A stretch of DNA of 64,000 nucleotides from assembly GCF_000328625.1 (NCBI RefSeq), contig NC_019978.1, positions 310,001 through 374,000 of the forward strand, given 5' to 3'. Of this stretch, positions 608 through 59,149 are shown piece by piece; within the stretch, counting starts at the first letter, position 1, and each line of letters opens with the position of its first letter. The stretch is from Halobacteroides halobius DSM 5150 (GTDB lineage: Bacteria; Bacillota; Halanaerobiia; Halobacteroidales; Halobacteroidaceae). A program made the position numbers and the translations under genes. The notes beneath the pieces are model-generated. The model was given only the letters and a program-made list of their open reading frames with translations. It had not been told where the DNA came from and searched no databases.

Positions 608-1043
608 TCTAAAGATAAAGTCCTTAGAAGATAGGGATTTAGGCCAAGTGTTAGCTATTGAAGAGGAAGCTTTTAGTAACCCTTGGTCATTTTCTACATT
701 TATTAAAGAATTACATAATAATTATGCATATTATCTAGTGGGCTTGATAGAAGATGAGTTGGTAGGATATTTGGGGTGTTGGTTATTGTGTAATGAGGTT
801 CATATTACTACCCTAGCGGTAAAAAAAGAGTACAGATGTCAAGGGATAGCTACCCAACTATTAGATGAATTATTTACAAATGTAAAGAAAGCTAATTATC
901 AAAAAGTCAGTTTAGAAGTTAGGGCATCTAATAACCGAGCCCAGAAGTTATATAAGCAAGCAGGATTTATAAAAGTTGGTAGAAAACAGGAATATTATAG
1001 TGATGACCAAGAAGATGCTATAGTGATGTGGAAACAGCTATAA
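600..1043 (+). CDS. rimI: Ribosomal protein bS18 alanine N-acetyltransferase RimI
   Basis: This is a GNAT-fold acetyltransferase of 147 residues, the usual RimI length, which acetylates the N-terminal alanine of ribosomal protein S18. The acetyl-CoA binding motif A is visible as RCQGIAT, followed by the LEVRASNNRAQKLY segment and the GF(I)KVGRKQEYY C-terminal motif common in RimI. The ATG overlaps the end of tsaB and has no strong ribosome site of its own, so translation is probably coupled. Position between tsaB and tsaD supports RimI over other GNAT enzymes, though substrate is inferred from family and context. Confidence 0.9.
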   Translation: MDSLKIKSLEDRDLGQVLAIEEEAFSNPWSFSTFIKELHNNYAYYLVGLIEDELVGYLGCWLLCNEVHITTLAVKKEYRCQGIATQLLDELFTNVKKANYQKVSLEVRASNNRAQKLYKQAGFIKVGRKQEYYSDDQEDAIVMWKQL

Positions 1044-1101
1044 TTCAATTGACAGTTAAAATCAAAAAATATAAACCAAAGTAAATTTGGGAGTGAAATT
1101 T

Positions 1102-2121
1102 ATGTCAGAAGGGTTTTTGACGTTAGGAATTGAAAGTTCTTGTGATGAGACTTCGGCTGCAGTGGTTAAAAATGGAAAACAAGTATTATCTAATGTAATA
1201 GCTTCTCAGATTGATTGGCACCGAAAATTCGGTGGAGTAGTACCAGAGATTGCTTCCCGAAAACATGTAGAGTTAATGAATCCAGTTATTGAAGAAGCTT
1301 TAGTTAAAGCAGGAGTTGATTTTACAGATTTATCAGCAGTAGCAGTAACCTATGGGCCAGGATTAGTAGGAGGTTTATTGGTGGGCATTGCAGCAGCTAA
1401 ATCAATTGCTTATACTCATGATTTGCCTTTAGTAGCTGTTAATCATATTGAGGGGCATATTTATGCTAATTTTATCTCTCATCCTCAATTAGAACCTCCT
1501 GTAGTTTGTTTAACTGTATCTGGGGGGCATACAGATTTATTATATTTTGAAGAATTAGGAACCTATCAAATTTTAGGGCGAACAAGAGATGATGCGGCAG
1601 GAGAGGCTTTTGATAAAATCGCTAGGGTAATGGAGATTGGCTATCCAGGTGGACCAGCAATAGATAAGTTAGCTACAGCAGGAGATGCAGAAGCTATTGA
1701 TTTACCTAGACCTTTAGTTGATGAGGCTAGTTATGATTTTAGTTTTAGTGGATTAAAGACAGCAGTATTAAATTATATTAATAATCAAAAGCAACGTGGG
1801 GAAGAAATATCTAAGCCAGATTTAGCAGCTAGTTTTCAGCAGGCTGTTGTTGATGTTCTTAAAAGCAAAGTTACTAAAGCTGCTTACGATAAAGAAGTTA
1901 ACCAAGTTATTTTATCAGGAGGGGTAGCTGCTAATAGTCAATTGCAAAGAGAATTAGAGAAGGAATTGACAAAGGTAGGTATTGAATTTTGTTATCCTGA
2001 ACTTAAGTTATGTACTGATAATGCAGCAATGATTGCTAGTGCTGGATATTTCAATTGGCAACACAATAAAGAAGAAGCGCCTTTTACCTTAAATGCTAAT
2101 CCAAGTTTAAAATTAAAGTAA
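1102..2121 (+). CDS. tsaD: tRNA N6-adenosine threonylcarbamoyltransferase TsaD
   Basis: TsaD transfers the threonylcarbamoyl group to A37 of tRNA. I place the start at the ATG at 1102 (MSEGFLTLG) because GGGAGTG at 1089-1095 lies just upstream; a TTG at 1087 in the same frame would overlap that site. The protein is then 339 residues, the normal size. Near the N-terminus is the signature GIESSCDETSAAV. The metal ligands H115 and H119 lie in HIEGH, and the nucleotide site residues are in SGGHTDL and the C-terminal LSGGVAANS segment. A hairpin after the stop probably ends the operon. Confidence 0.97.
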   Translation: MSEGFLTLGIESSCDETSAAVVKNGKQVLSNVIASQIDWHRKFGGVVPEIASRKHVELMNPVIEEALVKAGVDFTDLSAVAVTYGPGLVGGLLVGIAAAKSIAYTHDLPLVAVNHIEGHIYANFISHPQLEPPVVCLTVSGGHTDLLYFEELGTYQILGRTRDDAAGEAFDKIARVMEIGYPGGPAIDKLATAGDAEAIDLPRPLVDEASYDFSFSGLKTAVLNYINNQKQRGEEISKPDLAASFQQAVVDVLKSKVTKAAYDKEVNQVILSGGVAANSQLQRELEKELTKVGIEFCYPELKLCTDNAAMIASAGYFNWQHNKEEAPFTLNANPSLKLK

Positions 2122-2127
2122 GTATTA

Positions 2128-2160
2128 GTCATTCCTTAATCTAGGGAATGACTTCTTATT
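2128..2160 (+). terminator. Rho-independent terminator after tsaD
   Basis: GTCATTCC at 2128-2135 pairs with GGAATGAC at 2145-2152 across a 9-base loop, and is followed by a T-rich stretch (TTCTTATTT). It lies seven bases after the tsaD stop and separates the t6A operon from the transporter gene. Confidence 0.8.
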
Positions 2161-2256
2161 TAGAAGGGGCCAAAAAATCATTTGCAGAACCAGTTAAAAA
2201 TGTTAAGATATAATATGAGAGAAATAATTAGTAGTCGAGAAAGGGGAAGTTAAAGT

Positions 2257-3735
2257 ATGGCAAAAGAAGAGCAATGGCAAAGTAGAGCAGGATTTATATT
2301 AGCAGTTATTGGTTCAGCTGTGGGATTAGGGAACATATGGAGATTTAGCTATGTAGCTTATGATAATGGGGGAGGAGCTTTTTTAATACCTTATTTTATA
2401 GCTTTAGTTATGATTGGAATTCCTATATTGATACTTGAATTTAGTTTTGGTCGTAAAATGAGAGGGTCTGCTGCTCTTTCATTTCGTAAGTTAGCAAAAA
2501 AATGGGAATGGTTAGGTTGGTGGCCTACTTTAGCAACGTTAGTGTTAGTAATTTATTATATGGCTATAATTGGTTGGAGTTTAAATTATGTGTTTTATTC
2601 TTTTGGGCAAGTATGGGGTAAAAATCCAGAGGCTTTCTTTTATAACCAACATCTTAATTTGACTTCAAGTGTAGGGCAGTTAGGCGGAATTAATTGGACT
2701 GTGTTTGCCGCTGTATTTGTAATTTGGATCATTAATTATGCAATAATTTATAATGGGATTGAAAATGGTATAGAAAAAGCATCTAAGATTTTTATGCCGT
2801 TATTAGCTATATTAATGTTGGTGATAACAATTAGGGGTATTACACTACCTGGTGCTATAGAAGGAATTAATAAGTATCTACAACCTGATTTCTCTCAATT
2901 AATGAATGGTGAGGTTTGGTTAGCAGCTTTTAGTCAAATTTTCTTTACTTTAAGTATAGGTTGGGGAGTTATGATTACTTATTCTAGTTATCAACCTGAG
3001 GATTCTGATATAGTTAATAATGCTTTTATTGCTAGTTTGGCTAATTGTGGTTTTAGTTTTATAGTTGGGCTTGGTGTTTTTAGTATTCTTGGTTATATGG
3101 CAACTCAAACTGGTCAACCGATAGAAGGGTTAGTAGCTGAAAGTATAGGATTGGCATTTATAGCTTTTCCTAAGGCTATCAATATGTTACCAGCTTTTCA
3201 AACAGCCTTTGGTAGTCTATTTTTTATTTCATTAGTAATTGCTGGTCTTTCTTCAAGTATTTCAATGATAGAAGCTACAGTAGCTAATATTCAAGATAAG
3301 TTTGCTATTTCTAGAAAAAAAGCTGCTAGTATAGTATGTCTGACTAGTTGTTTAGGAAGTGTTTTGTTTACTACAGGAGCAGGATTATATTTATTAGATA
3401 TAATTGATCATTTCTTGATGCAATTTGGTGCTGGTTTAGCAGCTATATTCTTTTGTTTAGTATTAGGTTGGGGATATGGAGCCCAACGTTTAAGAAAATT
3501 TATGAACCAAGTCTCTGATTTTGAAATAGGAGTTTGGTGGGAGATTATGATTAAGTTGATTACTCCTGGTATTTTAATTATTATGTTTGGAAAAGGAGTA
3601 ATAGCAAACTTAACCAAAGGATATGGAGATTACTCCACTACAGCTTTAATTTTGGGCTGGTCTATTTCAATTGTAGTTATTTTGTTTGGTATATATTTAT
3701 CATCTTTGACTTGGCAGGAAAAAAGTGATAATTAA
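2257..3735 (+). CDS. Sodium-dependent transporter, NSS/SNF family
   Basis: This 492-residue membrane protein belongs to the neurotransmitter:sodium symporter family, which imports amino acids or related solutes with Na+. The hallmark first helix GSAVGLGNIWRFSYVAYDNGGG, containing the unwound Na+/substrate site, lies at about residues 17-40. I count about eleven to twelve hydrophobic segments, as in bacterial members such as LeuT and MhsT. The start ATG has an AGGGGAAG ribosome site 8 to 9 bases upstream. The substrate cannot be read from the sequence. The frame continues past the stop into a remnant described separately. Confidence 0.93.
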   Translation: MAKEEQWQSRAGFILAVIGSAVGLGNIWRFSYVAYDNGGGAFLIPYFIALVMIGIPILILEFSFGRKMRGSAALSFRKLAKKWEWLGWWPTLATLVLVIYYMAIIGWSLNYVFYSFGQVWGKNPEAFFYNQHLNLTSSVGQLGGINWTVFAAVFVIWIINYAIIYNGIENGIEKASKIFMPLLAILMLVITIRGITLPGAIEGINKYLQPDFSQLMNGEVWLAAFSQIFFTLSIGWGVMITYSSYQPEDSDIVNNAFIASLANCGFSFIVGLGVFSILGYMATQTGQPIEGLVAESIGLAFIAFPKAINMLPAFQTAFGSLFFISLVIAGLSSSISMIEATVANIQDKFAISRKKAASIVCLTSCLGSVLFTTGAGLYLLDIIDHFLMQFGAGLAAIFFCLVLGWGYGAQRLRKFMNQVSDFEIGVWWEIMIKLITPGILIIMFGKGVIANLTKGYGDYSTTALILGWSISIVVILFGIYLSSLTWQEKSDN

Positions 3736-13968: not shown

Positions 13969-14022
13969 ACTCACATAAGTTAACGACTTTTATGATTATT
14001 AAAATATAAAATTGAAGATTGT

Positions 14023-14093
14023 ATTTCGTATATCTTTGGGAATAGGGCCCGAAAGTTTCTACCAGCTAGCCGCAAACTAGCTGACTACGAAAT
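14023..14093 (+). promoter_or_regulatory. Guanine-class purine riboswitch upstream of guaA
   Basis: P1 is ATTTCGTA (14023-14030) with TACGAAAT (14086-14093). Between them are the conserved GGGCCCGAAAGTTTCTACC core and the P3 hairpin CAGCTAG/CTAGCTG. The specificity base in J3/1 (GACTA) is C, so guanine or hypoxanthine is the expected ligand, not adenine. It is followed by a terminator hairpin, so ligand binding probably switches off guaA transcription. Confidence 0.93.
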
Positions 14094-14145
14094 AGTAGTT
14101 TTTAGGGGTGAGCTGGCTTCAGTTGGCCCTTAAATGCTTCTATTT

Positions 14146-15912: not shown

Positions 15913-15953
15913 AATCTTGTCGAAACCAAAAAGACAAATATTATAAAAATATA

Positions 15954-16024
15954 ATTCCGTATAATCTCGGGAATAGGGCCCGGAAGTTTCTACCGACTAG
16001 CCACAAACTGGTCGACTACGGGAT
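15954..16024 (+). promoter_or_regulatory. Guanine-class purine riboswitch upstream of the NCS2 permease
   Basis: P1 is ATTCCGTA (15954-15961) with TACGGGAT (16017-16024), one wobble pair. The core GGGCCCGGAAGTTTCTACC and the P3 hairpin CGACTAG/CTGGTCG are present, and the J3/1 base in GACTA is C, indicating guanine or hypoxanthine. Its core is nearly identical to the guaA aptamer, but the stems differ. Confidence 0.93.
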
Positions 16025-16054
16025 AGTAATAGATTAATAATCATATTCTATCCT

Positions 16055-19338: not shown

Positions 19339-20477
19339 GTGACTAAGAAAAGACATTTACATTGTGCAGCTCAGAAAGTTTTGAATAATGGTGGTTGTGG
19401 AGGGATTGACGGTGTAGAAGTTGAAGAATTTAGAGAAAATTACACTAAGAATATGAGTGCTTTATATCGCCAGTTAACAGAAGATAGATATGAGCCACAA
19501 CCAGTTCTAAGAACGTATATCTCAAAAGGAAATGGAGAACAAAGACCACTAGGTATTCCAGTAATTAAAGACCGAATTGCCCAACAAGCAGTGAAACAGA
19601 TTCTAGAGATACACTTTGAAGAAATATTCTGCGACTGTTCTTATGGTTTTAGACCTAATAGGTCAACCGAAGATGCAATTAAGAAAGTAGAAGAATATAA
19701 AGAACAAGGTTATAATTGGGTATTAGACGCAGATGTCAAATCTTACTTTGATACAATAGACCATGAAATTTTAATGGAGCTGATAGCAGAGGAAGTAAGT
19801 GATGGTTGGATATTAGATATTATTAGGTCGTGGCTTACTATAGGTGTCATGACTGAGCAAGGGAAGAGAAGAAACAACGGAGGGAACTCCACAAGGAGGC
19901 GTAATTTCTCCACTTTTAGCAAATATCTACCTACATCACTTTGATAAGAAAATGACGCGTCGAGGATATAAGATAGTTAGATTTGCCGATGACTTTATAA
20001 TTATGGCTAAGAGTAAAGCTAAAGCAGAACGTGCTTTGGAAGTAACTCGCCAGATTATAGAAAATGAATTAAACTTAAGACTACATCCTCGGAAAACAGT
20101 AATTACGAATTTTGATGATGGGTTTAAATTTCTAGAATTTAGATTTTATAATGGTGATTATAAAATGCCAAAAGAGAGCTCTATTAAAAGTTTCAAGGAT
20201 AAAGTAAGAAAGAAAACCAAAAGGAATAGATCAATAGGAGTAGCTGTAATGATTGATGAACTTAATTTAATTATTACTTAATTTAATTATTAGAGGTTGG
20301 GGTAATAGCTTTCTACTAGGAAATGTTAAAGGACTATATAAAAAGTTAGATGGTTGGATAAGAATGAGAGTACGTTGTTTTATAGAAGGAAAGAAGGCGA
20401 AAGGACAGAATTATCGCCTTCCTAATAAAATATTAAGAGATTTAGGACTAGAATCACTGCTTACCGATGTGCTTTAG
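19339..20477 (+). pseudogene. Group II intron reverse transcriptase/maturase, frameshifted
   Basis: Three frames are needed to read the protein. The first (19339-19944) holds RT domains up to the palm (RPLGIPVIKDRIAQQ, YGFRPNRSTEDAI, DADVKSYFDTIDH). An apparent extra G in CAAGGGAAG at about 19861 shifts the frame; the next segment reads EGTPQGGVISPLLANI and the catalytic FADD. A perfect 16-base tandem duplication at 20261-20292 shifts it again, after which the maturase end continues (GWGNSFLLGNVKGLYKKLDGW ... LLTDVL) to TAG 20475-20477. The frame is open back to 19303 but shows no ATG, so the true start is unclear. Confidence 0.85.
20261..20292 (+). repeat. 16-bp tandem duplication inside the intron RT gene
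   Basis: CTTAATTTAATTATTA occurs twice back to back (20261-20276 and 20277-20292). Deleting one copy restores the reading frame through GWGN, so this is a recent slippage lesion. Confidence 0.95.
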
Positions 20478-20748
20478 ACAAGAGTAAAATATACATTTGT
20501 GGCAACACAAAGACGATAACTTACTCTCTGTTAAGGAGCAACAATGACCGAAAGCTGTATACGGGAGAACCGTACGTGCAGTTTGACAAGAGGTCCCAGC
20601 CGTGAGGCTGGTCCTACTTTATTAGAAGATATAAATTATTATATTATCTAGCAGGTATTTTAACTAATTATCTCTAATATCATAATTAAGTACGAATTTT
20701 TAAATCATGTACGATTATAGAGTGTAGCATAATTGGAGGGATAATTAA

Positions 20749-51807: not shown

Positions 51808-52119
51808 ATGTCTGGTATAAATAACAAATTACTAATATTAGTGTTATCATTCTTAATGATATTTAATCCCCTACTTACATTAGTAGGTATGGCAATGAAT
51901 TTCAAACCTGCTGTTGGTGAGACAGGGGGATTACCTGGTAAGGAAGTAGCAGTTAGTTCTCCAGATGGAAGACTGTATCTTTGGAACTTAGATAGAAGTA
52001 ATGTTAATAATTTTCCTAAAGATTTAAAAGGATATGCAGTGACTTCACCTTTATTGATTAATCTTGATGGAGATAAAGAAGATTTTAATGAAGTAGTTGC
52101 AGTTAGTAAAAAAGGCTAG
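51808..52119 (+). pseudogene. Rhs N-terminal fragment, copy 3
   Basis: A 103-codon frame starts at ATG 51808 after AGGAGG, with an intact signal peptide (MSGINNKLLILVLSFLMIF) and the same VGMAMNFKPAVGETGGLPG and FG-GAP-like sequence as copy 2. It ends at TAG where it meets the Rhs core, out of frame by one base. It could still give a short secreted peptide. Confidence 0.75.
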
Positions 52120-53046
52120 GAAGAAGTTAATTTACCAACATGGTTCTGGTGAGGATGATTATTATCAATACAAATATACCTATAATAAAAATAATAATCA
52201 ACTAAAAAATTATTCACTAAGTAAATACTCTCATTATAATTACACCTATAATGAAAATGGAAGTGTAACAAGTAAAAAATTAGTCCACGGTAAGATTGGT
52301 GATAATGGAGAATTAATATCTGCAGGAGACCCTTTGCAAGAGACTACTTATAAGTATGACTTACGGAATCAACTAAGGCAGATAAATATCAATGATCATC
52401 AGATTAACTTTAAGTATAATACTAAAGGTTGGCGGATTAAAAAGGATAATGGAATTAGGACAACTTATTATTTGTATGGTAAAGGACAGCAAGTATTGGA
52501 AGAAAGAGATAGAACTAATCAGTTAAATAGGTTCTTTATTTATGGTCAGAATGGCAGGATTGCTAGTGTAAATGGAGAGGGAGAATTAAAGTATATAATC
52601 AGTGATCAATTAGGTAGTACCTCTGTAATTACCGATGAAGAAGGAAATGAAGTTATGAGATATAAGTACAGTCCCTTTGGTAATTTGATTAAAAGTAAAG
52701 GTAATACTGAAGACAGTTATCGGTTTACAGGTAAAGAGTTTGATGGGATGACAGGATTATACTATTATGGTGCAAGATATTATGATCCGACAATTGGGAG
52801 GTTTATTACAGAAGATCCAGTACAGGATGGGTGGAATTGGTATACGTATTGTAGAAATAATCCGTTGAAATATGTTGATCCAAATGGATTAGATACTGAA
52901 TTACATGTAGAAGAAGATTCTCCAGATTATTATTATTTTACTGATTTAGGTTTTGGTGTGTATGAATCTAAGGATTTAGGATTTCATATAAATGCTAAAG
53001 CTGCAGCAAATGGTCAAAGGGTTTATAAGTTAGGCTCAGAAAACCC
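52116..53046 (+). pseudogene. Rhs core and tip variant 3, interrupted by the IS605-type element
   Basis: The core starts at the same junction as copy 2 (RKKLIYQHGSG) and is nearly identical to copy 1, ending at DPVQDGWNWYTYCRN and DPNGL. The tip begins DTELHVEEDSPDYYYFTDLG and reads up to KLGSEN at about 53044, where the IS left end starts. After the element, sequence from 57373 continues in a compatible frame as MSSFEGLIPSDPVFYANYGW and SAYEVLSSD, then runs into an IS4 end remnant at 57462. The tip is thus split and also cut at its 3' end. Confidence 0.75.
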
Positions 53047-53075
53047 CTATGCTTGTCTTAGGGGCTGAATGAGCC

Positions 53076-53108
53076 TTTAATTTTAAGGTTCGATACCTTA
53101 AAATTAAA
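53076..53108. terminator. Hairpin at the 3' end of the RHH gene
   Basis: TTTAATTTTAAGGT (53076-53089) pairs perfectly with ACCTTAAAATTAAA (53095-53108). It overlaps the last codons and stop of the reverse-strand RHH gene and probably terminates it. Confidence 0.7.
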
Positions 53109-53256
53109 CATTCTTTTGATTTTCGTACTTATCAATAATATATTCCATACCTTCTTCAATCAAATCATTAGCGTTCTTGTCTAACTTAATAGCCAACACT
53201 TTAATTTTTTTGTATAAATCTTCATCTAATGTAGTATTAACAGCTTTTCTTCTCAT
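53104..53256 (-). CDS. Ribbon-helix-helix regulator next to tnpB
   Basis: A 50-residue protein (MRRKAVNTTLDEDLYKKIKVLAIKLDKNANDL in parts) with the ribbon-helix-helix pattern of small antitoxin or CopG-type repressors. I start at ATG 53256 because AGAGGTG lies six bases upstream; upstream in-frame ATGs at 53262 and 53307 fit worse. It is divergent from tnpB across a 93-base region with a consensus promoter and two copies of an operator-like motif. Control of itself and of tnpB is inference. Confidence 0.75.
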   Translation of the reverse strand: MRRKAVNTTLDEDLYKKIKVLAIKLDKNANDLIEEGMEYIIDKYENQKNV

Positions 53257-53287
53257 TTCCATCACCTCTAAACCAAGTATATCATAT

Positions 53288-53332
53288 AGTTGACAACATA
53301 TCAACATTATGTTATAATATAGTTAACAACAT
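53288..53332. promoter_or_regulatory. tnpB promoter with two operator-like repeats
   Basis: TTGACA at 53290-53295 and TATAAT at 53313-53318 with 17-base spacing form a perfect sigma-A promoter for tnpB. AGTTGACAACAT (53288-53299) covers the -35 and AGTTAACAACAT (53321-53332) lies just after the -10, 33 bases apart. Both contain the GTTNACAAC word and suit binding of the divergent RHH protein. Confidence 0.7.
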
Positions 53333-53349
53333 AAAAAGGAGGTGAAACT

Positions 53350-56300
53350 ATGAGATTAGCATTTAAATTCAAACCTAATTTTAGCCATAAGCAACTAGAG
53401 ATAGTTAAAGGTGCGACTTGTTGTTAAATTAAAAGTTTAGTCTAGTTATCGGAGGATAATTAGAACTAAAAGACCTAAACAGTCAAATGAGAGGGTAACG
53501 CCTTGAAGGGCTGTCGATAATACTCCGAATTGCATTAAATTAATTAAGTAATTTAATGTAATAAGCTCGGTGAAGTCGGGTGAGATTAACTCCTAATTCA
53601 ATCTTCTGATTGAAAGGAAATGTACCTAGAGGTAGGTAAGGTTAGGATAGCTCGGTCGCCTATAAAAATACCTATGATTAGAAGGTACTTGAATAAAGTA
53701 CTGACGAATCTCTGAATGTACGGGTCTAAACTATCAATAATTAGAAATGATTATATCAACAAAGTTTGAGGTATGTGGGATTAGTAAAATTCTTTGATAT
53801 GAAAGTCCTTATACACTTATAGGGTATATATAAAACATACAGGCTTATAGGAGAAATCTAAGGGTAAATGTACAGGTAAGGTCTTTTGGAACAAGGGAAG
53901 CTAACGATATGGAGGTCTTAATACCTATGAAGTAGTGGTATGAAAATCATAACATACCTTAATGTTAGTGATAGTGTTGGCATAGTACCGTTGAAACTCT
54001 GATAACATGGAGTGGAGGGATAGCCAATAGTCAATAGTTCAAGATACAAGATATATCGTTTACAACATAAGGTTCTCGTGAGACTAAAAAAGGTGAAGTC
54101 TCTGCAAGGGGGTTTTAGCCGACTTATGACTGCGTTAAGGAAGGAACAAGTTGAGAATCCTAAGAAACAAAAATTAAGAAATAATGAGTATTACAATACC
54201 CAAGATATTCAAGATATGCTATATAGGTATAGCAAAAAAGGTTATGATTTTAAGAATCTAATGCACCATATAAAGTCAAAGGATAATATCCTACTGGCTT
54301 ACCGTAACATCAAGAAAAATACTGGTAGTAAGACTAGAGGTACTAATAATAAGACTATTAAGGATTTGGAAGAACTAACCACACAGAAACTTGTAGACTA
54401 TGTAAGAAATAGACTTGAGTATTACATCCCACAATCTGTAAGGAGAGTTTATATTCCAAAGCCAGACGGTAGGAAAAGACCGCTAGGAATACCCACAATC
54501 GAAGATAGATTAATACAACAATGTATTAAACAGGTTTTAGAACCTATTTGTGAGGCAAAGTTTCATAATCACTCATACGGTTTCAGACCTAACAGGTCAA
54601 CCAAACATGCCATTGCTAGAACAATGCGTTTAATAAACCAAAGCAAGTTACATTATGTAGTAGATGTTGATATAAAAGGGTTTTTCGATAATGTTGACCA
54701 CGCCAAACTAAAGAAACAAATGTGGTCTATGGGTATAAAAGATAAAAAGTTAATCTCTATAATAGGTAATATGCTCAGAGCAGAAATTGAAGGTGAAGGC
54801 ATCCCAGATAAAGGCACACCACAAGGTGGAATTATCTCACCTTTACTGTCTAATATAGTATTAAACGAATTAGACTGGTGGGTATCAAATCAATGGGAGA
54901 CATTTGAGACTGACTTCAAATACAACCAAAAATCTAATAAGTATCAAGCATTGAAGAAAAGGTCAAACCTTAAGGAAGTATACATTGTAAGGTATGCCGA
55001 TGATTTCAAGATAATGTGTAGAGATTATGAAATTGCTAGTAAGATTAAAGTAGCCACTATTCAATGGCTAAAAGAAAGATTAAACCTTGATGTGAGTAAA
55101 AAGAAAACTAAAATCACCAACCTTAAGAGAAGTTACACAAAATTTTTGGGTATTAAATTGAAAGTTGTTGAAAAAGGCAATAAATATGTATGCAAATCTA
55201 GAATAGCCAATGGAGTTAAAAAGAAACTTGCTGATAAACTCAAGCGTCAGATTAATAATATAAAACAAGAAACAACACCACAACAAGTGTCTAAGTTAAA
55301 TTCAATGATACTTGGTATGCACAATTACTACTCTATGGCTACACACGTGAATATTGATTTTTCAGAGATTGCCTTTTTAGTCAATAGAACCTTAGAGAAT
55401 CGTCTTAGTCCGAATAGAAAGGGAACTGAGTCAAAAGCTTTCAAGAAACTCTATGGAAGTTATAACTATAAACCTTATTGTGTGACAGGTATCAAAATAT
55501 TCCCAATAGCAGGTGTAACCACAAGTCCTCCAATGAATTTTAGTCAGGACATATGTGATTATACACCAAAAGGTAGAGAAAAGATACACAAGAAACTAAA
55601 AAGTGTATCACCAGTTGTACAAAGATATTTGGTTGAAAACCCTGTACAGGGTCAGTCAGTTGAGTATAATGACAATCGAATTGCTAGATATTCAGGGCAG
55701 AATGGTTGTTGCTTTGTAACTGGTAAACCTCTGACAATAGGTAATATTGAGTGTCATCACAAAAAGCCACGCAGTATGGGTGGTAAGGACACATACAGAA
55801 ATTTATGTTTAGTAACAAAAAATGTCCACAAATTGATACACTCAACTAAATCTGAAACAATTAAACGTTATTATGATAAGGTGAAAGGTTACTTTGATGA
55901 AGAAATCCTAAGTAAGCTCAATAAATTCCGAACTAAGGCAGGAAATGATTGTATCGAACTATCTTAAACTATGATGGAACGCCGTATGAGGTGAAAGTCT
56001 CACGTACGGTGTGAAGAGGGGGAAAAGCCAGAGATAACCTCAAAGGCTTACCTATCTCTATAGTTAAGTTGGCATACAAGTAAACTATATAATACTGTAA
56101 ACTATCAAATTAAAAACAATGAAGAAGTTAAACCTATCTATACTCGATTAGAAAAACAGTTTAAGCCTAACTGGCACACAGACTATCTGCATTCTCATAA
56201 TAGACAACAGCTTTTTAAACAATTAGCCCAAGATTGGAAAAGTTACTTTAATTCTATAAAAGATTACAATAACAACCCTAATAAATACCAAGGTCAACCT

Positions 56301-57251
56301 AAACCACCCAATTTTAAATATCTAAATAGCAATCCAAGTGAAATTATTTTTACTAATTTAGCTACCAGAGTTAGAGATGGAAACTTGTTACTATCCTTAT
56401 CTAAAGAGATGAAATCAAATTATAATGTAAAAAGTTTTAAATTTGAATTGCCACCAGCAGTTCAAAGCATTAGTAATTTAAATAATCTTCAACAGGTAAG
56501 GATAAAACGAGATAATCTTTCTAAAGACTGGTATTTGTTAGTGATCTATAAAGTTGAACCTAAAGATAAACCCCAGGGCAACAATATAATGGCTATTGAT
56601 TTAGGCCTTGATAATTTAGCTACCTTAACCTTTAAAGATAATCCTAAAGGTTATATTATTGATGGTAAGAAGATTAAATCAGAAAACAGATATTACAATA
56701 GAAGAATTTCTAAACTTCAAAAAATCAGAATGAAACAAGTAGGTAGTAAAAAATTTAAAGACACCAAACAAATTAAAAATTTTAGATTAAAAAGAAGAAA
56801 TTTTGTTGCTGATTATCTTCACAAAGCTAGTAGAAAGATAGTTAATCTAGCAATTAAGAATAAGGTATCTACTATTGTAATTGGAGATATATCAGGTATT
56901 AAGCAAAATAATAAGCAAAATAAACATTTTGTAGCTATCCCAATTCAAAGGTTCAAAGATTTAATAGAATATAAAGCAAAATTAGAAGGTATTAAAGTTA
57001 TTTTTCTTAATGAAGCCTACACTTCTGGTTGTTCTGCGATAGATGAAGAAAGATTAAGTAGAGCTGACTATGATAAATCTAGACGAATAACTAGAGGTCT
57101 TTTCAAGTCTGGTAATAAAATAATCAATGCTGATATAAATGGTAGCTTAAATATAATGAGAAAATATTTAAAGAATGGTACTCCCAAAATGGTAAAACAG
57201 ATTAGGGATATGGGACTTGTGGACACTCCCGAAAGATTAAGGGTATCCTAG
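53350..57251 (+). CDS. tnpB: TnpB RNA-guided nuclease-type protein, split by a group II intron
   Basis: Exon 1 is 53350-53410 (MRLAFKFKPNFSHKQLEIVK plus one base), exon 2 is 56062-57251 starting ...ELSWHTSKLYN. Joined, they give 416 residues with no break, the normal TnpB size. RuvC motifs are visible: IDLGLDNLAT with the first Asp and ADINGSLNIMRK with the last Asp. The middle motif reads VIGDISG rather than the VIEDL of ISDra2 TnpB, as in the IS1341-like branch. The zinc finger cysteines are largely missing. AGGAGGTG precedes ATG. Without splicing only a short peptide of about 25 residues would be made from exon 1. Confidence 0.85.
53411..56061 (+). mobile_element. Group II intron, apparently intact, inserted in tnpB
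   Basis: It begins GTGCGAC at 53411, has about 670 bases of structured RNA before the ORF, an intact intron protein, a domain V hairpin at about 55978-56013 (CGCCGTATGAGGTGAAAGTC...) and a domain VI ending in CTAT at 56061. The exons join as GTTAAAG and AGTTAAG. It lies on the same strand as tnpB, so it could splice from the tnpB mRNA. Length 2651 bases. Confidence 0.9.
54078..55967 (+). CDS. ltrA: Group II intron protein: reverse transcriptase, maturase and HNH endonuclease
   Basis: A 629-residue intron-encoded protein. RT domains: KPDGRKRPLGIPTIEDRLIQQ, YGFRPNRSTKHAI, DVDIKGFFDNVDH, GTPQGGIISPLLSN and the catalytic YADD at about 311-314. The maturase domain X lies at about 380-500, and the C-terminal HNH nuclease has CCFVTGKPL ... 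ECHHKKPRSMGGKDTYRNL. It cuts the second strand in retrohoming. The GTG start at 54078 is possible; ATG 54126 (MTALRKEQVE) after AAGGGGG is an alternative. No defects are seen. Confidence 0.92.
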   Translation: MRLKKVKSLQGGFSRLMTALRKEQVENPKKQKLRNNEYYNTQDIQDMLYRYSKKGYDFKNLMHHIKSKDNILLAYRNIKKNTGSKTRGTNNKTIKDLEELTTQKLVDYVRNRLEYYIPQSVRRVYIPKPDGRKRPLGIPTIEDRLIQQCIKQVLEPICEAKFHNHSYGFRPNRSTKHAIARTMRLINQSKLHYVVDVDIKGFFDNVDHAKLKKQMWSMGIKDKKLISIIGNMLRAEIEGEGIPDKGTPQGGIISPLLSNIVLNELDWWVSNQWETFETDFKYNQKSNKYQALKKRSNLKEVYIVRYADDFKIMCRDYEIASKIKVATIQWLKERLNLDVSKKKTKITNLKRSYTKFLGIKLKVVEKGNKYVCKSRIANGVKKKLADKLKRQINNIKQETTPQQVSKLNSMILGMHNYYSMATHVNIDFSEIAFLVNRTLENRLSPNRKGTESKAFKKLYGSYNYKPYCVTGIKIFPIAGVTTSPPMNFSQDICDYTPKGREKIHKKLKSVSPVVQRYLVENPVQGQSVEYNDNRIARYSGQNGCCFVTGKPLTIGNIECHHKKPRSMGGKDTYRNLCLVTKNVHKLIHSTKSETIKRYYDKVKGYFDEEILSKLNKFRTKAGNDCIELS

Positions 57252-57372
57252 GTTTTAACTAGGAGGAAACTTAAACACCAAACATCTTTCAAACTCACCT
57301 AGTAACATATAGCTATCTTAGTATATGTGAAGTAGTAAGAAGCCTCCGTTGTTTATCTCGGAGGTTGTTCAC
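57252..57372 (+). ncRNA. Right end of the IS605-type element, candidate omega RNA 3' part
   Basis: After the tnpB stop come GTTTTAACTAGGAGG..., short stems (ACATATAGCTA/TAGTATATGT) and the terminal hairpin AGCCTCCG/CGGAGGT before TTGTTCAC. TnpB guide RNAs derive from this end, with the guide being sequence just outside the element (the Rhs tip from 57373). Assignment follows from known TnpB biology and is not shown by the sequence alone. Confidence 0.45.
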
Positions 57373-57461
57373 CATGTCATCTTTTGAAGGTTTGATTCCA
57401 AGCGATCCTGTTTTTTACGCAAATTATGGTTGGAGTGCTTATGAAGTGTTATCATCTGATG

Positions 57462-57594: not shown

Positions 57595-59149
57595 TGATAG
57601 CGTAAAAAAAGTATAGGTGAATTTATCCAAAAAATTAGAAAAGAGCCACTCCTTTTGATAAGGTATTGTTAACCACAACAAAACCAAAGAAAGGAGATGG
57701 CTCTTATGGACAATATTATACAACAATTTGAGGAAAATATCAGCATTGAATTAGAAAAAATATTAAAAGAGGTGCTATTAGATTCAGGAAGGGATATATC
57801 AGAAGTAATAAATTTAATCAAAAGTAATCTTGATGAGTTAGGTAGAAAGCTTTCTAAATGGGTTATAGAAATAGTAGATGAAACAATAAAGGAAAGTACT
57901 AAAAGAAAAAAAGAATGGAAGATAGTAAAAAAGAAACAAAGAAAATTAATGACTAAGTTTGGGGAAGTGAAGTATAAAAGAAGATATTATCGTTCTAAAA
58001 GCAGTGATAAGTATAAATATTTAGCAGAAGAAAGATTAGGAATAAAGAAATATCAAAGGATGGATAGTTCGTTAGAAGCTGAATTAGTAGATTTAGCATC
58101 GGAAAATGCTTATAATAAGGTAGGTAAAGAGGCAGTAGACGATTTAGAAATAAGTGACCAAACAGTGATGAATAAGGTAAGAAAGCTAGGGCAAATAGAA
58201 AACAATGAATTAAATGAAGTAACAGAAAAACGGGAAGTAAACTGTTTGTATATAGAAGCAGATGAAGATCATGTAGCTTTACAAAATGGGAAGAAATCAA
58301 TGCCTAGATTAGTTTATATTCATGAAGGAATAAGTGAAGTTGGAGATAAGAGAGAATTAAAGAATAAATACTATTTTTCTGGAGTATATAAAGATTCAGA
58401 AGAGCTGTGGTTAGAAGTACTGGATTATATAGATGAAAATTATAAGTTAGAGAAAGTGGAAAAGATCTTTTTACTAGGGGATGGAGCACCATGGATTAAA
58501 AGCGGCTTAAAGTGGCTTCCTAAGTCTAAATACATATTAGATAGATATCATTTAATTAAGTATTTTAGGAGAGCTAGTAGATATGGAAGAAAAGAAGTTA
58601 AAGAAAAACTGTGGAGTGGATTAGAAGAACCAGACCAAGAGTTAGTTAAAGAAGCTTTTAGTGAATTGATATCTAATGAAGAAAATGAGAAAAGAAAGAG
58701 TTTAATTAGAAAATCACGTCATTATATTTACAATAATTGGGATGGAATAGTGAATTATACCCAGGATAAAGATGCAATTGGTTGTAGTGCTGAGGGACAT
58801 ATAAGCCATATATTGGCAGATAGATTAAGTTCAAGACCAATGGCTTGGTCAAAGACTGGTGTTGATCAAATGTCTAGATTACAAGCATTTAAGTTTAATG
58901 GTGGAAATAAAGAAAAACTGAAAGAATTGTTTTTGAGAAAGGAAGAAAAAATAAAAAAAGAAGAAACTTTAACAGAGATTGAATCTAAAACGATAAATAG
59001 TAAGTTAAAAAAGAAGTTTGCTCAATCTAAGAAGAATATACCTAGCATAAATATAGGAAGAAGAACAGGTTTAACTAGAGCTTTAAAGGCAATTGTTTGA
59101 TTGGGAAAATAATTTTTAACTATTAACCTATAAAAAATTGATGCTATCA
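57595..59149 (+). mobile_element. ISLre2-family insertion sequence
   Basis: One intact transposase gene lies between terminal inverted repeats: TGATAGC...AGTATAGGT (57595-57618) and ACCTATAAA...GCTATCA (59126-59149). TATTTAC occurs directly outside both ends (57588-57594 and 59150-59156), a likely 7-base target duplication; the match extends to TATTTACTGATA if the terminal bases are counted. Confidence 0.85.
57706..59100 (+). CDS. ISLre2-family transposase (UPF0236)
   Basis: A 464-residue transposase of the ISLre2/UPF0236 family. I choose ATG 57706 (MDNIIQQFEEN) with AAAGGAG nine bases upstream; ATG 57697 abuts that site. Typical segments are FGEVKYKRRYYR, the ADEDHVALQ acidic motif, LLGDGAPWIKSG, DRYHLIKYFRRA and the CSAEGHISHILADRLSSRPMAW region in parts. 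No defects are seen, so it may be active. Confidence 0.93.
   Translation: MDNIIQQFEENISIELEKILKEVLLDSGRDISEVINLIKSNLDELGRKLSKWVIEIVDETIKESTKRKKEWKIVKKKQRKLMTKFGEVKYKRRYYRSKSSDKYKYLAEERLGIKKYQRMDSSLEAELVDLASENAYNKVGKEAVDDLEISDQTVMNKVRKLGQIENNELNEVTEKREVNCLYIEADEDHVALQNGKKSMPRLVYIHEGISEVGDKRELKNKYYFSGVYKDSEELWLEVLDYIDENYKLEKVEKIFLLGDGAPWIKSGLKWLPKSKYILDRYHLIKYFRRASRYGRKEVKEKLWSGLEEPDQELVKEAFSELISNEENEKRKSLIRKSRHYIYNNWDGIVNYTQDKDAIGCSAEGHISHILADRLSSRPMAWSKTGVDQMSRLQAFKFNGGNKEKLKELFLRKEEKIKKEETLTEIESKTINSKLKKKFAQSKKNIPSINIGRRTGLTRALKAIV

What the first reader, a model, noticed from the sequence alone, without database searches (positions are those of the whole stretch)
53350..57251. tnpB split by an intact group II intron whose removal restores the frame exactly
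The tnpB frame stops soon after residue 20, at the intron's GTGCG start, and resumes at 56062. Joining base 53410 to 56062 completes a GAG codon and gives one uninterrupted TnpB of 416 residues. The intron protein (RT, maturase, HNH) is intact and on the same strand. Nuclease expression would then depend on splicing, and the intron would in turn travel with the element. A protein-level link between two RNA-based mobile systems is unusual.
Basis: partly seen in the sequence, partly recalled or inferred. Interest (0 to 1): 0.75.

Follow-up and report, generated by a model that had tools for sequence, protein, structure and literature searches.

The report
Group II intron splits tnpB gene
A self-splicing, self-spreading intron sits inside the gene for the TnpB nuclease of a jumping gene, so the cell should only be able to make the nuclease after cutting the intron out of the message; it is a clean new example of a known arrangement rather than a new kind of system.

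Summary
A 2,651-nt group II intron (53411-56061) interrupts codon 21 of a tnpB gene. Joining 53410 to 56062 gives one 416-aa TnpB. Intron-free tnpB genes in related genomes have the same junction; one is identical over 29 nt around it. The intron looks intact: GUGCG start, D5/D6 with a bulged branch A, and EBS1, EBS2 and EBS3 that pair with its own exons. Of 127,978 window 11-mers, only this site pairs fully with EBS1+EBS2. The RT/maturase/HNH protein is open and under purifying selection.

The lineage generally lives in ORFs. In 25 of 27 relatives with clear ends, removal restores a reading frame. In this genome, sister introns split phoH and the only thyX; no thyA was found. In a sister genus another TnpB is split at a different site.

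The claim that the intron would travel with the element is weak here: no Y1 TnpA was found in the genome, and the element's right end occurs once.

Verdict: splicing-gated TnpB expression is very likely but not shown. The closest precedent is RmInt1 in ISRm2011-2. New member of a known kind.

The parts
53022..57373 (+). IS200/IS605-type element (tnpB, RHH-like ORF, no tnpA) inserted in an RHS-repeat gene; carries the intron inside it
   Evidence: ends conserved with intron-free relatives L057 and L058; ends approximate to a few bases; RHS assignment of 52097-53068 from reading the translation, no Pfam hit
53044..53064 (+). left-end hairpin CCCCTATGCTTGTCTTAGGGG
   Evidence: conserved in L057 and L058
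53104..53307 (-). small ribbon-helix-helix-like ORF divergent from tnpB
   Evidence: RHH_1 below cut-off; homologues in L056 and L058
53350..53410 (+). tnpB exon 1 (codons 1-20 plus first base of codon 21)
   Evidence: junction matched by intron-free L056, L057, L058
53400..53404 (+). IBS2 (GATAG)
   Evidence: pairs with EBS2
53405..53410 (+). IBS1 (TTAAAG)
   Evidence: pairs with EBS1, five Watson-Crick and one G-U
53411..56061 (+). group II intron, GTGCG...AT
53461..53666 (+). intron domain I core (Rfam group-II-D1D4-5)
   Evidence: 154.9 bits
53731..53735 (+). EBS2 (CTATC)
   Evidence: covaries with IBS2 across five introns
53792..53797 (+). EBS1 (CTTTGA)
   Evidence: covaries with IBS1 across five introns
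53848..53848 (+). EBS3 (U), pairs with A56062, first base of exon 2
   Evidence: only column of the domain I alignment complementary to exon +1 in 5 of 6 introns, the sixth a G-U
54126..55967 (+). intron-encoded RT/maturase/HNH protein, 613 aa (frame open from GTG 54078); YADD at 54993-55004, HHKKP of HNH at 55755-55769
   Evidence: low dN/dS against homologues
55979..56012 (+). intron domain V
   Evidence: Rfam RF00029 and fold
56015..56061 (+). intron domain VI, bulged branch-point A at 56054, and 3' end
56062..57251 (+). tnpB exon 2 (rest of codon 21 to stop)
57342..57364 (+). right-end hairpin; expected 3' part of the omega RNA region
   Evidence: conserved in L057 and L058; omega RNA role inferred from knowledge of the family

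Best explanation
A mobile group II intron inserted, by EBS-guided reverse splicing, into the 5' part of tnpB in an IS200/IS605-type element. The tnpB transcript first gives the intron's own RT/maturase. The maturase then helps the ribozyme cut itself out, joining ...AAAG to AG..., which restores the codon GAG and a full 416-aa TnpB. TnpB production is thus gated by splicing. Shown here: the sequence, the exact junction, intact ribozyme and protein features, the exon pairing, and purifying selection. Inferred: that splicing happens in the cell, how efficient it is, and that TnpB is an active nuclease.
For: Exact frame restoration. Intron-free alleles with the same junction in L056, L057 and L058. 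Domain I and full-length D5/D6 matches. In five distinct introns EBS2 pairs 25 of 25 bases Watson-Crick with its own exon and no shuffled assignment does as well; EBS1 own pairing is also the best of 120 assignments. The 5' splice site is the only full EBS1+EBS2 match among 127,978 window 11-mers. In 25 of 27 relatives with clear ends removal restores an ORF, against 2-4 of 27 for shifted joins. A sister intron splits the genome's only thyX and no thyA was found, which suggests that this intron family splices in this cell. TnpB dN/dS is about 0.14-0.17 and the window copy has no excess of amino-acid changes over an intron-free copy (32 against 45).
Against: No RNA data. Splicing efficiency is unknown; RmInt1 ligates under 1% of its transposase exons in vivo (PMC4238363). 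The C-terminal ThyX domain might be translated alone, which weakens the thyX argument. Purifying selection measured between species may mostly predate the insertion.
Confidence: 0.85

Rival explanations
1. The intron acts mainly as a brake on TnpB. Splicing is inefficient, or the excised intron RNP re-attacks the ligated tnpB mRNA through EBS-IBS pairing, so little TnpB is made. This is compatible with splicing being real; it differs on the outcome.
For: Published precedents: Ll.LtrB reopens its ligated relaxase mRNA (PMC6003770) and RmInt1 limits its host IS (PMC4238363). The ligated tnpB mRNA keeps the full IBS2-IBS1 target.
Against: Nothing here measures mRNA. Sister introns sit in thyX and phoH, which argues against very poor splicing by this family.
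Confidence: 0.4
2. The intron no longer splices in this context and tnpB is a dead gene carrying an intron that survives only as a retroelement.
For: The element is a single copy without TnpA, so selection to keep TnpB could be weak; many bacterial group II introns behave as retroelements rather than introns (PMC4238363, PMC4424553).
Against: Both exons are fully open, with no frameshift or stop and no excess of amino-acid changes. All ribozyme and pairing features examined are intact.
Confidence: 0.1
3. A co-adapted composite element: TnpB and the group II intron form one unit that spreads by TnpB-aided homing, a group II counterpart of the IStron.
For: In the same bacterial family, three of five distinct insertion sites of this intron lineage lie in TnpB-bearing elements.
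Against: The insertion sites differ. Close relatives of this tnpB lack the intron. The wider lineage lives in unrelated ORFs and shows no TnpB in its flanks. No TnpA in this genome.
Confidence: 0.08

Closest known systems
RmInt1 in the transposase gene of ISRm2011-2 (Sinorhizobium meliloti), PMC4238363
   Same: group II intron inside the gene of an insertion sequence; splicing needed to make the IS protein
   Different: RmInt1 is a class D intron and interrupts the transposase; here the host gene is the accessory RNA-guided nuclease TnpB, and this intron protein has an HNH domain
Ll.LtrB in the relaxase gene ltrB of pRS01 (Lactococcus lactis), PMC6003770
   Same: group II intron with RT/maturase/endonuclease protein in a gene of a mobile element; host protein made only after splicing
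   Different: conjugative plasmid relaxase rather than an IS nuclease; mRNA re-targeting shown there, only possible here
IStrons, group I intron plus IS605-type element (PMC4227781)
   Same: self-splicing intron physically joined to an IS200/IS605-type element
   Different: group I ribozyme that encloses the IS and is spliced together with it; here a group II retroelement lies inside tnpB and only the intron is removed
Group II introns in housekeeping genes, such as recA of Geobacillus kaustophilus (cited in PMC4424553)
   Same: intron in a conserved coding gene that must be spliced; same pattern as the thyX and phoH copies in this genome
   Different: host gene

Membership tests
Group II intron (mobile, RT-encoding) | GUGYG 5' end and AY 3' end | tested here: met
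   GTGCG at 53411, AT at 56060-56061
Group II intron (mobile, RT-encoding) | domain V with catalytic stem-loop and domain VI with bulged A | tested here: met
   Rfam RF00029 full model and fold; A56054 unpaired
Group II intron (mobile, RT-encoding) | EBS1, EBS2 and EBS3 pair with the flanking exons | tested here: met
Group II intron (mobile, RT-encoding) | intact RT/maturase protein | tested here: met
   TIGR04416 349 bits against cut-off 300; YADD intact
Group II intron (mobile, RT-encoding) | splicing and retrohoming activity | not testable with these tools
   needs RNA and mobility assays
Group IIB / class B type | structural class of the ribozyme and phylogenetic class of the protein | not tested
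   relatives are mostly in Bacillota, which would fit class B, but no tree with reference classes was made
RNA-guided TnpB | curated family profile | tested here: met
   NF040570 171 bits against 100
RNA-guided TnpB | RuvC D-E-D catalytic residues | tested here: inconclusive
   both Asp present (residues about 200 and 378); canonical Glu replaced by Gly, but a Glu lies at the alternative position described in PMC10711439
RNA-guided TnpB | omega RNA and RNA-guided DNA cleavage | not testable with these tools
   right-end hairpin conserved; fold of the right end not better than shuffles
IS200/IS605 element | subterminal hairpins at both ends | tested here: met
   conserved with L057 and L058
IS200/IS605 element | Y1 transposase TnpA in the element | tested here: not met
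   none in the element, none in the genome; a relative, L058, has one, so this copy is tnpB-only
IStron | group I intron fused to an IS so that the whole insertion is spliced out | tested here: not met
   Rfam reports only group II matches, and the intron lies inside tnpB

The most novel reading that the evidence does not exclude
In Halobacteroidaceae this intron lineage repeatedly colonises TnpB-bearing transposons, giving RNA-guided nucleases whose expression is gated, and possibly restrained through EBS-IBS attack on tnpB mRNA, by a group II retroelement that is itself carried by TnpB-aided homing: a group II counterpart of the IStron.
Probability: 0.12. Interest if true: 0.65.

Novelty: new member of a known kind. 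Interest (0 to 1): 0.38.

Why it matters
It gives a clean natural test of how a group II intron controls an RNA-guided nuclease: the splice junction, the exon pairing and intron-free alleles are all known, so intron-plus and intron-minus versions can be compared directly. It also points to a Bacillota-centred intron lineage that sits in conserved genes, including what looks like the only thymidylate synthase gene of this organism, which runs against the usual view that bacterial group II introns seldom interrupt housekeeping genes.

Tried and rejected
Chance frame restoration: rejected by intron-free homologues and shifted-join controls. A displaced 3' splice site (the domain VII type known in some class B introns, PMC4424553): rejected because the canonical AY boundary restores the frame exactly. 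TnpB as a privileged host of the whole lineage: rejected, no TnpB in the flanks of the other surveyed loci. Current co-mobility with an active IS in this genome: not supported. One protein alignment failed on a wrong frame. Papers that join newer IStron and TnpB work were not in the library. The fold of the right end alone was no more stable than shuffles (z -1.2), so it does not by itself support an omega RNA. A viral-contig scan for the intron protein gave seven loci that were not analysed.

Full report
What is there. Reading exon 1 (53350-53410) straight on gives MRLAFKFKPNFSHKQLEIVK and a stop five codons later. Joining 53410 to 56062 gives one 416-residue protein. That protein passes the curated NCBIfam cut-off for RNA-guided TnpB (171 bits against 100) and matches Pfam OrfB_IS605 and the Cas12f1-like TNB domain. 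The 2,651 nt between the exons begin GTGCG and end in AT. They carry Rfam matches to group II domain I (155 bits) and to domains V-VI over the full model (59.7 bits). The intron protein is open from GTG 54078, but its homologues begin at the ATG corresponding to 54126, and two of them have a stop in the stretch upstream of it.

The junction is real, not only arithmetically possible. Related genomes of the family carry the same tnpB without intron: L057 at 76% and L058 at 71% amino-acid identity, and L056, which ends with its contig and has 82% DNA identity to the joined sequence. In L056 the 29 nt around the junction, TAGAGATAGTTAAAG|AGTTAAGTTGGCAT, are identical. L057 is identical from GAGATAG onward, and L058 differs at a few bases.

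The intron looks competent. Domain V has its GAAA-capped stem, and domain VI has an unpaired A at 56054, eight bases from the 3' end. Comparison with introns of 70-80% protein identity in the same genome and in relatives exposed the exon-binding sites, because these are places where the otherwise similar introns differ. EBS2 (CTATC, 53731-53735) pairs with GATAG of exon 1. EBS1 (CTTTGA, 53792-53797) pairs with TTAAAG. EBS3 (T53848) pairs with the first base of exon 2. Across five distinct introns EBS2 pairs 25 of 25 bases Watson-Crick with its own exon, when a spacer of 0 or 1 nt is allowed, and no shuffled assignment matches that. I picked these sites by eye on the alignment before testing, so the shuffle is a guide, not a strict probability. 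EBS1 also pairs best with its own exons, though weakly for the thyX copy. In the window, only the actual splice site pairs fully with EBS2 and EBS1 among 127,978 11-mers on both strands. The intron protein has YADD and HNH residues conserved in all five homologues. Pfam scores for HNH and the maturase domain are below cut-off, while TIGR04416 is passed. Pairwise dN is 0.12-0.25 with dS near or above 1, so the protein is under purifying selection, although dS is saturated.

What kind of intron it is. A scan of a collection of 84,980 species genomes returned 80 loci of this protein lineage, mostly Bacillota (more candidates existed than were kept). Where both intron ends were unambiguous (27 loci), removing the intron gave at least 50 open codons on both sides in 25 cases, against 2-4 for joins shifted by 1-2 nt. 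Host proteins, read from the joined sequences, include PcrA-type helicase (the same DEYQD/TN site in several genera), TraG/VirD4-like and CpaF-like ATPases, DNA polymerase III alpha, topoisomerases and DNA methyltransferases. These names were recognised from the sequences and not run through a family search. So this lineage habitually sits in ORFs and must splice to keep them. In the window's own genome sister introns split phoH and thyX. The split gene carries the only ThyX matches, and no ThyA match was found. If the cell makes its own thymidylate, this intron family splices in it. The caveat is that the C-terminal ThyX domain might be made from an internal start.

TnpB as host. The window case is not the only one. 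In Natroniella acetigena (L063, the same locus as L059 of G003) and in G004 an intron of this lineage interrupts a different TnpB near its RuvC-II region; in Natroniella, removal restores the frame. In G001 one interrupts an IS607 tnpA upstream of a tnpB. Three of five distinct insertion sites in the family are thus in genes of TnpB-bearing elements, while none of the other surveyed loci shows TnpB in its flanks. With so few events this may only mean that dispensable mobile genes tolerate introns, the general pattern for bacteria (PMC4424553).

The element. Left- and right-end hairpins are conserved with intron-free copies and the intron lies between them, so it would be carried along if the element moved. 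But the copy has no tnpA, the genome has no Y1 transposase match, and a probe of the right end finds one copy. Relative L058 does have a tnpA. The TnpB has the RuvC-I and RuvC-III aspartates. The canonical RuvC-II glutamate is replaced by glycine, but a glutamate sits at about the alternative position described for some TnpBs and Fanzors (PMC10711439). It lacks the four-cysteine zinc finger, as do its close relatives. TnpB dN/dS between species is 0.13-0.17, and the window copy has fewer private amino-acid changes than intron-free L057 (32 against 45).

Mechanism and standing. The most likely reading is that tnpB RNA gives the intron protein, the intron is spliced with its help, and only then is TnpB made. 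The open question is how much. RmInt1 ligates under 1% of its transposase exons (PMC4238363), and Ll.LtrB reopens its ligated host mRNA (PMC6003770). The ligated tnpB mRNA keeps the same target, so a similar brake is plausible. The arrangement works like RmInt1 in ISRm2011-2 and is filed as a new member of that known kind. [quoted passage not shown] I found no paper describing a group II intron in tnpB, but the library lacks most subscription journals, so that is weak evidence of novelty.

Identity of the organism. The genome is a single contig of 2,649,255 bases, with Natroniella acetigena as a same-family relative. This fits Halobacteroides halobius, which is listed in a group II intron survey (PMC8919778). 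That is my inference from size and kinship; no tool named the genome.

Noticed in passing
G000:C1:174346-178161 (L033 4257-8276): The genome's only thyX is split by a sister group II intron (80% identical protein). Removal restores a two-domain ThyX, and no thyA was found: a housekeeping gene that seems to depend on group II splicing.
   Followed up: partly
L034 2986-6912 (G000:C1 about 828485-832411): A phoH-type gene is split by another intron of the same lineage (70% identical protein); joining restores one ORF.
   Followed up: yes
L060 about 857-3636 (minus strand): An IS607 tnpA is split by an intron preceded by a 21-nt copy of an intron 5' end, which looks like the remnant of one intron inserted into another. 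Either 5' site keeps the frame.
   Followed up: partly
L061 about 366-2364: In G004 the tnpB-borne intron is itself interrupted, just after the YADD codons of its reverse transcriptase, by an insert that encodes another group II-like reverse transcriptase: a nested arrangement.
   Followed up: partly
window 53104-53307 (minus): A small RHH-like ORF lies divergent from tnpB. A homologue is kept in L056 with no tnpA beside it, and one overlaps tnpA in L058; possibly a regulator of the element.
   Followed up: partly
window about 19354-20622: A second, broken group II intron: RT fragments in two pieces and a weak domain V-VI match.
   Followed up: no
whole genome G000: 37 matching stretches to the intron protein, from roughly 20 loci: the genome is rich in group II introns of several types.
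   Followed up: no
window 14006-14107 and 15937-16038: Two purine riboswitches about 1.9 kb apart.
   Followed up: no
window 57697-59100: A UPF0236 / ISL3-like transposase-type gene directly downstream of the IS element.
   Followed up: no
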